Shown here piece after piece: positions 5,137 to 10,899 of a DNA stretch of 37,563 bases. The stretch is from Methanomicrobia archaeon (lineage in GTDB: Archaea > Halobacteriota > Bog-38 > Methanoflorentales > Methanoflorentaceae): the NCBI GenBank assembly GCA_015661395.1, contig JACWML010000017.1, forward strand, positions 1-37,563, read 5' to 3'. Every line of letters starts with the position of its first letter. Positions within the stretch are counted from its first letter, which is position 1. A program made the translations under genes and the position numbers. Below the pieces are notes generated by a model. The model saw only the letters and a list, made by a program, of their open reading frames with translations. It was not told where the DNA came from and did no database searches.

Positions 5137-6660
5137 ATGGCTGCGACGGACCTCGACTCTAAGCTGCCCGACGTTTCCCGCAGCTGCGCCCGACCAAGGA
5201 GCAAACTTTTTTATACTCGCGCGAGCAGCTCTCAAATAGAATTGTTTTTCTTCTCCGTGGATCAATTGAGCGACCCGTTCGAAGGGCAGGGGCTTTCGAA
5301 CACACGGGACAAACTCGACGAGTTCGCTCGAACGAAGCTGAAGGAGGGCTGGCGCGAGGCGCACCAGGCTCCCTTCTCTCCCTGGACGTTCTACCGCATG
5401 GCCGTCAGCTACCTCTACCTCTCTAAGCCCTATCCCGCGTTGGCGGCGTGCGCGAAAGCGCTCCAGCTGAGCAACTCGGAGTCCGTCATCAACGCCGCGC
5501 ACGACGCGCTCAGCGTCCTCGACGCGTGTGAGGAGGAACTCGTCGGCTATGAGTGGTTGCGCCGGTTGCTCCTGATCGGCGCTGCGGGGAGGTTTCACGC
5601 GTCCCGCGCGCTGTCGGAGCTGCAGCTGCTCGCATTGCCGGAAGCGCCGATCGCCCCCCCGGTCACGATTCTCGCGGGCGGGTGCAGGGCCGACGACGAC
5701 GCGTGCTTCGTCGTTTTTCGCCCGCTCGTGATTGAAGCGTTTCGCACCTACACGGGCACGATCATCTCGGGGGGGACGCCCATCGGGGTCAGCAGTATGG
5801 CTGGGGACGTGCAAGAGGCGTTTCCCGAGTCTATCCACGCGATCGGCTACGTCCCGCGCGGCGTGACCAACACGCCCCTCGATCACCGCTATAACGAGAT
5901 TCGGCTAACGCCCAATTCCGACTTCAGCGCCATGGAAGTGATCCAGTACTGGTGCGACCTCGTCGCCTCCGGCGTTTCGCCCTCGCAGGTGACGGTATTG
6001 GGCATCGACGGCGGCCCAATATCCGCGAGCGAATACAAGGTGGCCTTGGCCCTCGGCGCGTCCGTCGCCTTGCTCGAAGGAAGCGGCCGCGAGGCGAAAA
6101 AGCTTCGGCACAACCGGCGCTGGCGGGCCTCTCGGGGGCTCGTGTGCATTCCCGTTGACAGCTACATCATCGAGGAGTTCGTCAAGCCCCATCCGCAGCA
6201 GCTCGATACGGCCGAGCGGGAGCGTTTGGCGCGGGTCATTCACGACGCGTACAGGGAACGCGAGCGGGGCGTCACGCCCGCGGATGATCCGTCGATGGCG
6301 CCGTGGGACGAGCTACCGAGTTATCTGAAGCACTCGAATCGCGCCCAGGCGGATCGTATCTTTGAGAAGGTGGAGCGCATCGGGTACACCGTCGAGAGGC
6401 GTACCGGCGGCAGCGCGGCGCCGATCACGGATTTCACGCGTGATGAGCTTACCGTGATGGCGCAGATGGAGCACGGTCGCTGGGTGGTCGAGCGCCTCAA
6501 CGGAGGGTGGATGCCTGGATCCGGACGGGACGTCCGGCACAAGATAAGCCCCTATTTTGTCCCGTGGCGCGCCTTGCCTGAGTACGTGAAGAACAAGGAG
6601 CGCAAAATGGTGCGCACCATACCCACGCTCCTCGACGCGATCGGGCTGCAGGTTGGCTAA
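5137..6660 (+). CDS. SLOG/LSDAT-like nucleotide-sensor domain fused to C-terminal RyR domain, helical/TPR-like N-terminus
   Basis: C-term MAQMEHGRWVVERLNGGWMPGSGRDVRHKISPYFVPWRALPEYVKNKERKMVRTIPTLLDAIGL matches the RyR pattern (HxxW...GW..G..rd...hP.lvpw..Lpe..K..d...v..ip.ll...G). Middle TIISGGTPIGVSSMAGDV...VTVLGIDGGPISASEYKVALALGASVALLEGSGREA is Rossmannoid SLOG/LSDAT-like. Confidence 0.82.
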   Translation: MAATDLDSKLPDVSRSCARPRSKLFYTRASSSQIELFFFSVDQLSDPFEGQGLSNTRDKLDEFARTKLKEGWREAHQAPFSPWTFYRMAVSYLYLSKPYPALAACAKALQLSNSESVINAAHDALSVLDACEEELVGYEWLRRLLLIGAAGRFHASRALSELQLLALPEAPIAPPVTILAGGCRADDDACFVVFRPLVIEAFRTYTGTIISGGTPIGVSSMAGDVQEAFPESIHAIGYVPRGVTNTPLDHRYNEIRLTPNSDFSAMEVIQYWCDLVASGVSPSQVTVLGIDGGPISASEYKVALALGASVALLEGSGREAKKLRHNRRWRASRGLVCIPVDSYIIEEFVKPHPQQLDTAERERLARVIHDAYRERERGVTPADDPSMAPWDELPSYLKHSNRAQADRIFEKVERIGYTVERRTGGSAAPITDFTRDELTVMAQMEHGRWVVERLNGGWMPGSGRDVRHKISPYFVPWRALPEYVKNKERKMVRTIPTLLDAIGLQVG

Positions 6661-6867
6661 ACGGGCGACGAGTAGGCGCGAGCGCGTCACGTGCAGATCC
6701 GGCGTAAAGGGATCGTTTTTTGTACTTTGAGCGAGCGTACACACGTCAGTAAGCGATGAAGTGCCGAGCGCTCCGCGCGTGGTGCGGACCCGACGGGAAG
6801 CGAACGCGCACCGCGTCGGTCTTTGGGCACCTCGGTCAGCAGAGGTGCTGCGCGTCACCGCTGGGTT

Positions 6868-8046
6868 ATGATCGTCATGGTGCCGTCATACGCTGAGCAG
6901 AGCGCGCTCGTCAGCGACCGTCGCGAACAGGGCGCCGATCAGACGGACGACATGCACGACACCCCTGAAGAAATGGCGCAGTGGAAGCCGCTTGCGGCTG
7001 CCCTTCAGAGCTGTCAAGAAAAGGTCGAGCCGGCGTATCGGGCCGCGGACCGCACCGCGCTGCGATTTCAGAAGCAGCACCAGGCCATCACGATTGCGGC
7101 TGCCATCGCCGGCACCGTCGCCGTGCTGCTTGCGATCCTCCAGCTGCCCTCGATTATAGGCGGATTTCTCGTGCCGATTCCCTTCGTCGAAGGCATGGCG
7201 GCAGCCATCGCGTTTGTCGCCGTCCTGCTCGGCATCTTCACGCTCCGGCACGTGGGGTGGATGTTCCTGCGCCACAAGGCGGAACGGTTCAAGTTTCTCA
7301 AGTTTCGCTTCCTCATCGACCCGCACCTGTGGAGCGACGACGCCGCTCAGCGGGAACGCACGACGCAATGGCTGACGTATGCGACCAACAAGATCGCGGG
7401 GCTGACGAACGAGGAGTTGGAAACGTGGGCAGAGCACGGCATTCTCCCCGAAGAGCCGCCGAGCTTGGCGGGCAGCCGGGCCGACGCCTACACCCTCTAC
7501 AGCCTCGTCGACTACTACCTCACGAAGCGCTGCAGGAATCAGCTCCACTACTTTGAGCGCAAGGCGCAGCAGTTTTCGAGCACGGATCGCTATATCAAGG
7601 CGCTGCCCCGTCTGCTGTTCTTTGGGAGCGTCCTCGCCGCGCTCGCGCACTTCTCTCTCGACCTCTTCGACACGTACCTTCAGCCGCCCGAGGCTGCGGC
7701 GCAGGCAGCCGAAACAACGGCGCGCGTGCCCACTATTACCCTTGCAATCGCCCTTATCCTCGTCGCCGCGTCGCTCCCGGTCATCGGCGCGGGCGTCCGG
7801 ACGTTCCGCTCGGCCTATCAGCTCGCCCGCAATACGAGCCGCTACAAGGCGGCGTTCGAGGCGATTAAGCTTCCTGCGGAACGGCTGGAACACGATGCCG
7901 AGCGCCTATACGGGCTCTACGCCGAGGGGCGTACCACCATCGACGCCCACGACGTCTTCCGCGACCTGTGGCGCTGCGAGCAAATCCTTGAGGCCGAACA
8001 CCGTGAGTGGCTCCGCCTCATGATGGAGGCAGAGTGGTTCGGCTAG
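6868..8046 (+). CDS. Membrane protein with two TM-hairpin units resembling SLATT/DUF4231 (SMODS/SLOG-associating 2TM effector)
   Basis: Two pairs of hydrophobic helices (AITIAAAIAGTVAVLLAIL / AAAIAFVAVLLGIFTL and LLFFGSVLAALAHF / TLAIALILVAASLPVIGAGV), each followed by a basic/aromatic helix (RHKAERFKFLKFRFL; RTFRSAYQLARNTSRYKAAF). ORF opens at a TTG (6823); ATGs at 6868 and 6952. Domain name is inferred from topology and neighbours. Confidence 0.6.
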   Translation: MIVMVPSYAEQSALVSDRREQGADQTDDMHDTPEEMAQWKPLAAALQSCQEKVEPAYRAADRTALRFQKQHQAITIAAAIAGTVAVLLAILQLPSIIGGFLVPIPFVEGMAAAIAFVAVLLGIFTLRHVGWMFLRHKAERFKFLKFRFLIDPHLWSDDAAQRERTTQWLTYATNKIAGLTNEELETWAEHGILPEEPPSLAGSRADAYTLYSLVDYYLTKRCRNQLHYFERKAQQFSSTDRYIKALPRLLFFGSVLAALAHFSLDLFDTYLQPPEAAAQAAETTARVPTITLAIALILVAASLPVIGAGVRTFRSAYQLARNTSRYKAAFEAIKLPAERLEHDAERLYGLYAEGRTTIDAHDVFRDLWRCEQILEAEHREWLRLMMEAEWFG

Positions 8047-8175: not shown

Positions 8176-9210
8176 ATGAGCGACAATATCTTCATCAGCT
8201 ATTCGTCAAAGAACAAGGCCATAGCTGACGCCGTCTGTCATAAACTCGAAGAGCGCAAGATGAAGTGCTGGATAGCGCCACGCGACATCCTGCCGGGGGC
8301 GAACTACGCCGAAGAGCTCATTAACGCGATTGACAACAGCAAACTCTTCGTGCTCATTTTTTCCAAGGATTCCAATCAATCGCAACACGTGCTCCGCGAG
8401 TGCGAGCGAGCCGTCTCTCACGGGATCCCGATCGTCCCATTCCGGATCTCGGACGTGCTCCCGGGCGCGGCGCTGCAGTACTTCATAGGTCCGCAGCACT
8501 GGCTCGATGCGATCACCGAGCCGTGTGCGGCCCACATAAACCGACTCGCCGACACGGTGCAGATCCTCCTGACGCAGGAGGACCTCACGCAAAAGAGCGC
8601 CGGTGAAGCGCTTATCGAAGCCGAAGCGCTTGCAGTGCAGCGACAACAGCAGGTCCTCAGAATGCGGAGGACTTCGATCGTCCTCGCAGCGGTGGTGGTG
8701 GTTCTCGCCGCGGTGGGCGGCGGGTGGTTCTATACGCAGCAGATGAATCAGGCGAGCTTGAACCTAGTGCCCTTCACGGACAAGGCGGCAGGGTTTCAGA
8801 TTCAGGTTCCTCAAGGCTGGACCAAGACTCAACCGAGCCCCCCCGGTGATCCTCCGGTCGCCTTGATCGTCTACCTGCCGACGGGTAATCAGTCAGAAAA
8901 CCTGTTCGTCAATAACGTATCCGCAAAGGGGGCCGACTTTGATAACGTTACCAATGCAAACCTTAACACCGCGCAGAACCTGCTTAGCAGCAACCAGATC
9001 ACCATACAGGAGTCAGGCCTGACAAGCTTGGCGGGACAAAACGCGTACAAGCTCGTGTATACGATCAACAGCTCAGGTCTCCAGTGCATGCAAATCTGGA
9101 CGGTTAACAACAATACGGTGTACCAGCTCACGTACAACGCACAGCCCCAGCACTACACCCAGTACTTGTCAACGGTCCAAAACATGGTCAACTCGTTCCA
9201 GTTCGTCTGA
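8176..9210 (+). CDS. TIR domain - single TM helix - PsbP/DUF1795-like C-terminal domain
   Basis: MSDNIFISYSSKNKAIADAVCHKLEERKMKCWIAPRDILPGANYAEELINAIDNSKLFVLIFSKDSNQSQHVLRECERAVSHGIPIVPFRI (bacterial-type TIR); TM TSIVLAAVVVVLAAVGGGWFYT; then FTDKAAGFQIQVPQGWTKTQPS...MVNSFQFV (PsbP-like). ATG at 8176 follows GGTGAGG. Confidence 0.9.
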   Translation: MSDNIFISYSSKNKAIADAVCHKLEERKMKCWIAPRDILPGANYAEELINAIDNSKLFVLIFSKDSNQSQHVLRECERAVSHGIPIVPFRISDVLPGAALQYFIGPQHWLDAITEPCAAHINRLADTVQILLTQEDLTQKSAGEALIEAEALAVQRQQQVLRMRRTSIVLAAVVVVLAAVGGGWFYTQQMNQASLNLVPFTDKAAGFQIQVPQGWTKTQPSPPGDPPVALIVYLPTGNQSENLFVNNVSAKGADFDNVTNANLNTAQNLLSSNQITIQESGLTSLAGQNAYKLVYTINSSGLQCMQIWTVNNNTVYQLTYNAQPQHYTQYLSTVQNMVNSFQFV

Positions 9211-9489: not shown

Positions 9490-10899
9490 ATGGCGGAGTT
9501 GTTTCACAAGGCGATTCAGATGAATAACGACAGCAACGTAGAAAGCCTCATTGCGGACTTAGGAAGTTCGGAATGGAATACGAGGAGCGAGGCCGTACGC
9601 GCGCTCCGCAAGCTCGGCGACAAGCGCGCCGTCGAGCCTGTCATCAGCATGTTGAACGACGAAAATAAGGTGGTGCGCAAATACGCGGCATACACGCTCG
9701 ACAAACTCGGCGACACGCGTGCCGTTGAGCCGCTTATCACCGCGCTGAGCGACGAGAGCACGAGCGTGCGAAGCATGGCCGCCCAGTCGCTCGGCCACCT
9801 GGGCGATACACGCGCCGTGGAGTCGCTTCTCAACGTCTTGCAGCACGACGAGGAATGGCTCGTGCGCGACGCAGCGGCGCACGCGCTCAGCCACCTCGGT
9901 GACAAGCGTGCCGTCGAGCCCCTCATCGCCGCCATCGGCGACGAGCACTGGTTCGTTCGTGAGGCGGCCGTGCGCGCCGTAAGCAAATTGGACGACCAGC
10001 GCGCCCTTGAACCGCTGATTTCCGAAGCCTTTGACGACGAGCACTGGTTCGTTCGTGAGGCGGCAGTGCAATCGCTCGCTTTACTGCACGACCCGCGCGC
10101 GGTTGAAGCGCTCATCACGATCGTTACGAGTCCAAAAAGTGAGGAGGGGCGGGGCAGCCCCGGCGACATATACGTTCGAAAGGCGGCGACGCAGGGCCTG
10201 GGTCAGCTCCATGACAAGCGCGCGATTGAGCCGCTCATCGTCGCGCTCACCGACGAGTACCGCGTGGTTCGCGAGGAGGCGGCCCGTGGCCTCGGTCAGC
10301 TCCGTGATAAGCGCCCCGTTACTCGCCTCACCCGCGCGTTGGATGACGAAGATTGGATCGTGCGCGAGGCTGCCGCCCGCAGTCTCGGCCAAATTGGTGA
10401 CGACCGCGCCGAAGACGCCCTCTATGACACCGTTATGGGTAACCGGCCGTGGATCCGCGACTTAGATGATGAAGACAAGTACGTGCGCAAGGCGGCGACG
10501 CACGCGCTCTGGAAGCTCGGCGACATGCGCGCCCTCGACGGGCTGATCGATAACTTAAAGAACGAGGATCGCTTTGTTCGCAAAGCCGCAGCCGAAACGC
10601 TTGGCCAGCTCGGCGATGAGCGTGCCGTAGATGCACTCATTGATGCTCTCGCCAATTCGGAAAGCGCTGACCGGGCGCACGCCGCAGACGCATTGGGAAA
10701 GATCGGCGATACGCTGGCCGTTGAGTCTCTGATCCGCGCCTTGGGCGACAATAATGCAGTCGTACGCAAGTACGCCGCGTACGCCCTTGGTCAACTCAAC
10801 GATCCGCGGGCGACCCCTCCACTCACCCGGGCTTCAAAGGATGCAGACATGGACGTACGAGATTCCGCTGCTCACGCATTGTGGCGGCTTCAATGTTGA
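9490..10899 (+). CDS. HEAT-repeat protein (PBS-lyase/E-Z type), about 14 repeats
   Basis: Repeating ~31-aa unit such as LGDKRAVEPLIxALxDExxxVRxAAAxALGxL throughout the ORF. Confidence 0.93.
   Translation: MAELFHKAIQMNNDSNVESLIADLGSSEWNTRSEAVRALRKLGDKRAVEPVISMLNDENKVVRKYAAYTLDKLGDTRAVEPLITALSDESTSVRSMAAQSLGHLGDTRAVESLLNVLQHDEEWLVRDAAAHALSHLGDKRAVEPLIAAIGDEHWFVREAAVRAVSKLDDQRALEPLISEAFDDEHWFVREAAVQSLALLHDPRAVEALITIVTSPKSEEGRGSPGDIYVRKAATQGLGQLHDKRAIEPLIVALTDEYRVVREEAARGLGQLRDKRPVTRLTRALDDEDWIVREAAARSLGQIGDDRAEDALYDTVMGNRPWIRDLDDEDKYVRKAATHALWKLGDMRALDGLIDNLKNEDRFVRKAAAETLGQLGDERAVDALIDALANSESADRAHAADALGKIGDTLAVESLIRALGDNNAVVRKYAAYALGQLNDPRATPPLTRASKDADMDVRDSAAHALWRLQC
9940..10065 (+). repeat. 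Identical 29-nt segment in two neighbouring HEAT repeats (gacgagcactggttcgttcgtgaggcggc)
   Basis: The string occurs near 9940 and again near 10037, encoding DEHWFVREAA both times; surrounding bases differ. Confidence 0.85.

What the first reader, a model, noticed from the sequence alone, without database searches (positions are those of the whole stretch)
8176..9210. Receptor-shaped TIR protein: cytosolic TIR, one TM helix, probable external PsbP/DUF1795-like domain
The TIR domain carries FISYSSKNK and WIAPRDILPG motifs and a conserved-looking Glu in LREC, and precedes a single strong TM helix. The downstream ~150 aa (GFQIQVPQGW...) resembles PsbP-like domains of secreted proteins. This topology suggests an outside-to-inside sensor, opposite in order to animal Toll-like receptors and unlike the soluble TIR effectors of Thoeris-type systems.
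Basis: partly seen in the sequence, partly recalled or inferred. Interest (0 to 1): 0.72.

Follow-up and report, generated by a model that had tools for sequence, protein, structure and literature searches.

The report
Membrane-spanning TIR receptor in an archaeon
An uncultured archaeon carries a receptor-like protein with an immune-type TIR domain inside the cell, one membrane helix and a sensor-like domain outside; its neighbour genes resemble parts of animal calcium channels, so it may pass an outside signal inward through a molecule made from NAD.

Summary
ORF 8176-9210 (+), 344 aa, is a TIR domain (Pfam E 4e-21), one TM helix (residues 167-185) and a PsbP domain (E 1e-10). TIR-TM-PsbP itself is unique in my searches: none of 383 phylum genomes and none of 65 TIR-TM-C proteins has another. 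TIR-TM-variable C-terminal domain, however, is the prevailing layout of this TIR subfamily: 65 of 95 TIRs, from archaea and many bacterial phyla. The putative NADase Glu (E75) is invariant in 50 of 50 aligned rows. Charge bias across the TM, and PsbP relatives that are lipoproteins, support N-in/C-out.

RyR is the commonest Pfam family among operon partners of related TIRs (14 of 99). TIR and RyR co-occur (12 of 16 TIR genomes; RyR in 21 of 383). The window's RyR domain is a full tandem Repeat12 (Z 14.6 to a bacterial/human RyR chimera). A 2026 preprint shows that phage RyR domains bind or cleave the TIR products 2'cADPR and 3'cADPR.

Best reading: a membrane TIR receptor makes an NAD-derived signal, read by LSDAT/RyR and acted on by SLATT. 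Biochemistry is inferred. New variant of a known kind.

The parts
8176..9210 (+). TIR-TM-PsbP protein, 344 aa
   Evidence: ORF and Pfam; AlphaFold2 model
8176..8574 (+). TIR domain (residues 1-133); putative catalytic Glu E75 at 8398-8400; BB-loop WIAPRDILPG
   Evidence: Pfam TIR_2 E 3.9e-21; fold Z 18.2 to SPARTA TIR, 17.3 to human SARM1 TIR, 16.0 to AbTir; E75 invariant in 50/50
8575..8673 (+). juxtamembrane helix (residues 134-166) joining TIR to TM, ending in RMRRT
   Evidence: continuous helix 117-185 in the model; 4 K/R before and 0 after the TM
8674..8730 (+). single transmembrane helix (residues 167-185, SIVLAAVVVVLAAVGGGWF)
   Evidence: hydropathy 2.34
8764..9204 (+). PsbP domain (residues 197-343), predicted outside the membrane
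   Evidence: Pfam PsbP E 9.7e-11; nearest relatives are lipoproteins of the same genus, up to 43% identical
5137..6660 (+). TPR-LSDAT(SLOG)-RyR protein, 507 aa; probable reader of a nucleotide signal
   Evidence: Pfam RyR E 1.8e-12, LSDAT_prok E 6.8e-7; sequence match to a RyR crystal structure E 1.6e-10
6175..6657 (+). tandem RyR Repeat12-like domain (residues 347-507); H446 and W449 conserved, S and E488 at the other two ligand positions of RyDEP
   Evidence: Z 14.6 over 153 residues to 6uhi and 14.2 over 159 to human RyR3 Repeat12; invariant H446/W449 in 11 rows; alignment
6823..8046 (+). SLATT-like membrane protein with four TM helices in two pairs (start uncertain: TTG 6823, ATG 6868 or 6952); candidate effector
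   Evidence: NCBIfam SLATT_1 E 3.6e-10, 39.9 bits against cut-off 41; Pfam DUF4231 E 8.6e-4; TMs; homologs with TIR and RyR genes in G251 and G206
9490..10899 (+). HEAT-repeat protein downstream; membership of the cluster not shown
   Evidence: Pfam HEAT_2 E 3e-97; 279-nt gap with a T-run

Best explanation
A transmembrane TIR receptor of an NAD-derived signalling module. Steps: (1) the PsbP domain faces the cell exterior and reports a ligand or a change at the envelope [topology well supported, ligand unknown]; (2) the change is passed through the continuous juxtamembrane/TM helix and clusters the cytosolic TIRs [inferred from the model and from TIR biology]; (3) the TIR uses E75 to turn NAD+ into an ADP-ribose derivative, possibly a 2' or 3' cADPR isomer [residues conserved, activity not shown]; (4) the neighbouring TPR-LSDAT-RyR protein binds and reads, or removes, that signal [fold shown, part of the binding site kept, binding not shown]; (5) the SLATT-like membrane protein is the effector that permeabilises or depolarises the membrane [inferred from SLATT literature]. 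Purpose: most likely antiviral or stress-induced dormancy/death, a Thoeris-like logic with the trigger placed at the cell surface.
For: TIR with invariant E75 and an NADase-type fold. Topology: charge bias, long P/S/T-rich stalks after the TM in many relatives, and PsbP relatives that are lipoproteins. Association: RyR is the commonest Pfam family among operon partners of related TIRs, 14 of 99 including the window's own gene, with DUF4231/SLATT in 4. RyR genes lie within the held flanks of 15 of 80 named TIR loci, 10 of them within 300 nt; the rate seen in the phylum would give 0.05. In the phylum, RyR and strong TIR genes co-occur in 12 genomes where 0.9 is expected, Fisher p 3e-14, not corrected for kinship. 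Close RyR-TIR neighbours occur in G049, G176, G181, G372, G319 and G345, and looser clusters in G206 and G251. SLATT homologs of the window's SLATT gene occur with TIR and RyR genes in G251 and G206. A complete Repeat12-like domain in the window's RyR protein. PMC13232231 shows that phage RyR domains bind or cleave 2'/3'cADPR and that the family's ligand residues are conserved. PMC9503650 and PMC7159879 record TIR-SLATT gene association and the prediction that SLATT is a nucleotide- or ADPr-regulated membrane effector.
Against: No activity, binding or phage data exist. The three genes are same-strand but not tightly packed (gaps of at least 162 nt and 129 nt), so one transcript is not shown. 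The window's RyR keeps only two of the four RyDEP ligand residues unchanged (H, W; S replaces H100 and E replaces D117). The SLATT match is just under the curated cut-off. Only 15 of 80 TIR loci have a RyR gene nearby, so coupling is not universal; many flanks are truncated. No virus or defence island was seen around the cluster; the contig otherwise carries surface-polysaccharide and housekeeping genes.
Confidence: 0.5

Rival explanations
1. Surface-anchored TIR defence protein in which the C-terminal domain is only an anchor or envelope-integrity monitor: the trigger is intracellular (a viral structural protein, as for Thoeris TIRs), and the TIR depletes NAD+ directly. RyR/LSDAT and SLATT genes are independent neighbours.
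For: Known prokaryotic TIRs sense phage capsids inside the cell (titles/abstracts PMC12578639, PMC11312562). C-terminal domains vary without a common ligand-binding fold (TPR, Sel1, WD40). RyR gene absent near most TIR loci.
Against: The TIR-RyR association is far above the background rate, and the conserved TM with a varied outer domain looks like receptor diversification.
Confidence: 0.25
2. Non-immune signalling receptor: an outside-in environmental sensor whose TIR works as a scaffold or low-output signal enzyme. RyR proteins with PAS/HisKA and TrkA_N domains would tie it to ion or redox homeostasis.
For: RyR partners carry PAS_4/HisKA or 2TM-TrkA_N domains, typical of sensory and ion-transport regulation. 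Neighbouring genes in the window are cell-surface polysaccharide and metabolic genes.
Against: E75 is invariant in 50/50, which points to catalysis rather than scaffolding alone; the patchy distribution (16 of 392 genomes with a strong hit) fits an accessory conflict system better than a core sensor.
Confidence: 0.2
3. The membrane topology is inverted or the segment is not membrane-inserted, so the PsbP domain is cytosolic and the protein is a soluble or peripheral TIR.
For: No topology experiment exists; the AlphaFold2 model cannot show insertion.
Against: Hydropathy 2.34 with RMRR on the N-side and no K/R in the 15 residues after it; the same bias in 56 of 67 relatives; PsbP relatives are exported lipoproteins.
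Confidence: 0.05

Closest known systems
Thoeris anti-phage systems (ThsB TIR + ThsA)
   Same: TIR with the NADase Glu; a SLOG-type domain in a neighbour gene; a nucleotide-signal logic is plausible
   Different: TIR is membrane-spanning with an outer domain; no SIR2-SLOG or Macro ThsA found; partner is LSDAT-RyR plus SLATT; Thoeris models match only weakly
Animal Toll-like / IL-1 receptors
   Same: Single-pass TM, cytosolic TIR, outer sensing domain (inferred)
   Different: Reverse order (TIR first), no LRR or Ig ectodomain, TIR probably enzymatic
TIR/SLOG/SLATT conflict systems described by Burroughs, Aravind and colleagues (2015, recalled; 2020 PMC7159879; 2022 PMC9503650)
   Same: TIR, SLOG and 2TM SLATT components in gene neighbourhoods; SLATT predicted to be a nucleotide-regulated membrane effector
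   Different: The two papers read here do not mention RyR or LSDAT; the 2015 paper could not be opened and may cover part of this
RyDEP, phage RyR-domain anti-Thoeris proteins (PMC13232231)
   Same: PF02026 domain with the H..W ligand residues
   Different: RyDEP is a viral signal destroyer or sponge; here a host tandem RyR fused to TPR and LSDAT beside the TIR; H100 and D117 replaced by S and E
PsbP / PsbP-like lipoproteins of the same archaeal genus
   Same: PsbP domain, up to 43% identical
   Different: Elsewhere a stand-alone exported lipoprotein; only here joined to a TIR

Membership tests
TIR domain family / TIR NADases | TIR fold and Pfam model above cut-off | tested here: met
   TIR_2 76 bits against 28; Z 16-18 to SPARTA, SARM1 and AbTir TIRs
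TIR domain family / TIR NADases | Glu between strands C and D needed for NADase (E75 in PMC7075850) | tested here: met
   E75 present, invariant in 50/50 relatives
TIR domain family / TIR NADases | NAD+ cleavage in vitro | not testable with these tools
   needs a bench assay
Thoeris | ThsB-type TIR recognised by curated models | tested here: not met
   PADLOC ThsB E 8e-4 at best; NCBIfam ThcB4 23.5 bits against 220
Thoeris | Adjacent ThsA-type effector gene (SIR2-SLOG or Macro) | tested here: not met
   The nearest genes are LSDAT-RyR, SLATT-like and HEAT repeat; neither upstream gene matches a PADLOC model and none of the three matches a SIR2 or Macro domain in Pfam
Toll-like receptors | N-terminal LRR ectodomain, TM, C-terminal TIR | tested here: not met
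   TIR is N-terminal and the outer domain is PsbP
PsbP domain family (PF01789) | Pfam model above gathering score | tested here: met
   42.4 bits against 23.5, nearly full length
RyR domain family (PF02026), neighbour gene | Pfam model above gathering score and Repeat12-like fold | tested here: met
   47.8 bits against 27.4; Z 14.2-14.6 over 153-159 residues
RyR domain family (PF02026), neighbour gene | Four ligand residues of RyDEP (H75, W78, H100, D117) | tested here: inconclusive
   H446 and W449 kept; S and E488 at the other two positions
LSDAT/SLOG, neighbour gene | Pfam LSDAT_prok above gathering score | tested here: met
   29.2 bits against 25.4
SLATT, neighbour gene | Curated SLATT model above cut-off | tested here: inconclusive
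   NCBIfam SLATT_1 39.9 bits against 41; Pfam SLATT/DUF4231 below gathering

The most novel reading that the evidence does not exclude
Prokaryotes have a large, so far unnamed class of true transmembrane TIR receptors with interchangeable outer domains that convert surface signals into cADPR-type messengers read by RyR Repeat12 and TRPM-like LSDAT domains and executed by SLATT or 2TM-TrkA-RyR membrane proteins: a surface-triggered counterpart of Thoeris that joins, in one archaeal cluster, domains otherwise known from animal Toll receptors, ryanodine receptors and TRPM channels.
Probability: 0.3. Interest if true: 0.85.

Novelty: new variant of a known kind. Interest (0 to 1): 0.62.

Why it matters
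How prokaryotic TIR systems are switched on is largely open; the cases reported in the papers found here sense phage proteins inside the cell. A TIR joined through the membrane to an outer domain would be an outside-in TIR receptor in an archaeon, comparable in logic to animal Toll receptors. The linked RyR Repeat12 and LSDAT domains give the system a testable signal and receiver, and bear on why animal ryanodine and TRPM channels carry nucleotide-binding domains of these families.

Tried and rejected
Mobile spread: no relative in plasmid records or viral contigs. Another TIR-TM-PsbP: none among 42 PsbP places in 30 of 383 genomes, none among 65 outer domains. DUF1795/DcrB identity: no match in the window protein. 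RyR-TrkA proteins as canonical K+ channels: 2TM plus TrkA_N is there, but no TVGYG-type filter motif. PsbP tree: the window groups loosely with same-genus lipoproteins, branches mostly weak, so recruitment from the resident family is likely but not proven. Structure of the LSDAT/TPR half of the RyR protein: pLDDT mostly under 50, not used. Flank synteny with sister genomes: flavodoxin hits were scattered paralogs, so insertion of the cluster could not be dated. Base composition: RyR, SLATT and TIR genes are 56-64% G+C against 43-48% in several other genes of the contig, but other contigs of the genome range 46-57%, so no claim of foreign origin. PDB sequence hits for the PsbP and SLATT parts: nothing significant. 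The 2015 Burroughs paper and the 2025 TIR-systems preprint are not held, so priority could not be fully checked.

Full report
Observation. The ORF at 8176-9210 is real and its three parts are as described. Pfam assigns TIR_2 to residues 5-113 (E 3.9e-21) and PsbP to 197-343 (E 9.7e-11), both above their curated cut-offs. A single strongly hydrophobic helix lies at 167-185. The AlphaFold2 model has the TIR at pLDDT 90-98, then one continuous helix 117-185 that runs into the membrane, then a poorly resolved domain whose strands and C-terminal helix fit PsbP. The TIR model matches enzymatic TIRs: Z 18.2 to SPARTA, 17.3 to SARM1, 16.0 to AbTir.

Where it comes from. The window is a whole contig of a 2.16 Mb draft genome. 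The window's genus (seven genomes) has no nearer relatives than the phylum in this collection.

Topology. Four K/R lie in the 15 residues before the helix and none in the 15 after it. Across 67 relatives with one TM after the TIR the means are 3.3 and 1.4, with N>C in 56. Many relatives have long P/S/T-rich stretches after the TM, as extracellular stalks do. Of the PsbP proteins collected in the phylum, nearly all begin with a hydrophobic signal/TM segment and most of those in the genus have a lipobox, including the stand-alone copy in the same genome. N-in/C-out is therefore well supported, though not proven.

How unusual it is. A scan of 85,000 species genomes with the TIR profile returned the best 80 loci from archaea and many bacterial phyla. 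Together with the archaeal set, 95 distinct TIRs were sorted: 65 are TIR-TM-C-terminal domain, 9 are outer domain-TM-TIR, 14 have no TM, 7 are other. The C-terminal domains have no common family: TPR, Sel1 and WD40-type repeats lead, and PsbP was reported for the window; no other PsbP appears among the listed families. In 383 genomes of the phylum the PsbP family has 42 places and only the window's frame also carries a TIR. So the receptor-like layout is common in this TIR subfamily and the PsbP version is so far unique. The scan was seeded with similar TIRs, so these fractions describe this subfamily, not all TIRs.

Neighbours. Upstream on the same strand lie a 507-aa TPR-LSDAT(SLOG)-RyR protein (5137-6660) and a SLATT-like protein with two TM pairs (6823-8046). 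The RyR half folds as a complete tandem Repeat12 domain: Z 14.6 over 153 residues to a Bacteroides/human RyR chimera, 14.2 over 159 to human RyR3; direct sequence match to 6uhi, E 1.6e-10. The gaps between genes are at least 162 nt and 129 nt, so a single transcript is not established.

Is the company meaningful? Among 99 operon partners (97 from related TIR loci plus the two window genes) RyR is the most frequent Pfam family (14), followed by PAS_4 (6), TrkA_N (5), HisKA (5) and others including DUF4231/SLATT (4). Fifteen of the 80 named loci hold a RyR gene, ten within 300 nt of the TIR gene, where the rate in the window's phylum predicts 0.05 (the rate is archaeal, so this is an order-of-magnitude control). 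In the phylum 16 of 392 genomes have a strong hit to this TIR and 21 of 383 a RyR; 12 have both, against 0.9 expected. RyR and TIR genes are close neighbours in G049, G176, G181, G372, G319 and G345. SLATT homologs of the window's gene sit with TIR and RyR genes in G251 and G206. In two sister genomes the TIR-TM gene adjoins an 8xMP-family membrane protein instead. Kinship inflates these p-values, but the pattern spans archaea, Chloroflexota, Actinomycetota and others.

Mechanism. TIR enzymes make ADP-ribose signals. A 2026 preprint (PMC13232231) shows that phage RyR-domain proteins bind or cleave 2'cADPR and 3'cADPR and that the ligand residues are conserved across PF02026. SLATT has been predicted to be an ADPr- or nucleotide-regulated membrane effector that associates with TIR genes (PMC9503650; PMC7159879). 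The simplest reading joins these: outer domain, TIR, signal, LSDAT/RyR reader, SLATT effector. In the window's RyR two of four RyDEP ligand residues are unchanged (H446, W449) and two are replaced (S, E488), so it may bind without cleaving, or prefer another ligand. Some RyR proteins beside TIRs keep all four residues at RyDEP's spacing (for example G049). A reader, a signal sink or a signal terminator are all possible for the RyR protein.

Comparison. It works like a Thoeris system with the trigger at the surface, but it is not a Thoeris member by the tests run: curated ThsB models do not reach cut-off and no ThsA effector is adjacent. It resembles a Toll-like receptor in plan, not in order or ectodomain.

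Limits. No enzymatic, binding, topology or phage evidence exists. The literature library lacks the two papers most likely to overlap. Statements about RyR and LSDAT in earlier conflict-system papers rest partly on memory.

Noticed in passing
L028 4315-5523 and 5577-6455 (G049); L021 9301-10341 and 12296-12868 (G003): Separate exported PsbP genes lie next to TIR genes in two other genomes (54 nt and about 2 kb apart), as if the window's fusion joins two genes that already travel together.
   Followed up: partly
L070 6812-9397 (own genome C46): Paralog of the RyR neighbour with an added RelA_SpoT domain (RelA_SpoT-TPR-LSDAT-RyR, 861 aa), next to a NUDIX gene (L070 9440-10120).
   Followed up: partly
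L066 4684-6462, L064 6565-8364, L087 11381-13165, L089 8110-9942: 2TM-TrkA_N-RyR proteins beside TIR genes; channel-like layout without a canonical K+ selectivity filter.
   Followed up: partly
L064 and L065 (G251, about 20 kb): Island with several TIR genes (TIR-AAA-TPR, TIR-kinase, TIR-TM-TPR and one TIR without a TM), a 2TM-TrkA-RyR, a SLATT homolog and a giant WD40 protein.
   Followed up: no
L094 5971-8820: Chloroflexi RyR-TPR_S-guanylate cyclase protein directly upstream of a TIR with five TM helices.
   Followed up: no
L163 3343-4386 (own genome C27): Second TIR of the same genome, soluble and of another class.
   Followed up: no
L021 10463-10951 and L022 527-1030: 8xMP-family (PF24838) membrane protein next to TIR-TM genes in two sister genomes.
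   Followed up: partly
window 13385-37243: Rest of the contig carries surface-polysaccharide genes (epimerase, flippase, glycosyltransferases), acetyl-CoA synthetase and a ThiD-ThiN fusion.
   Followed up: no
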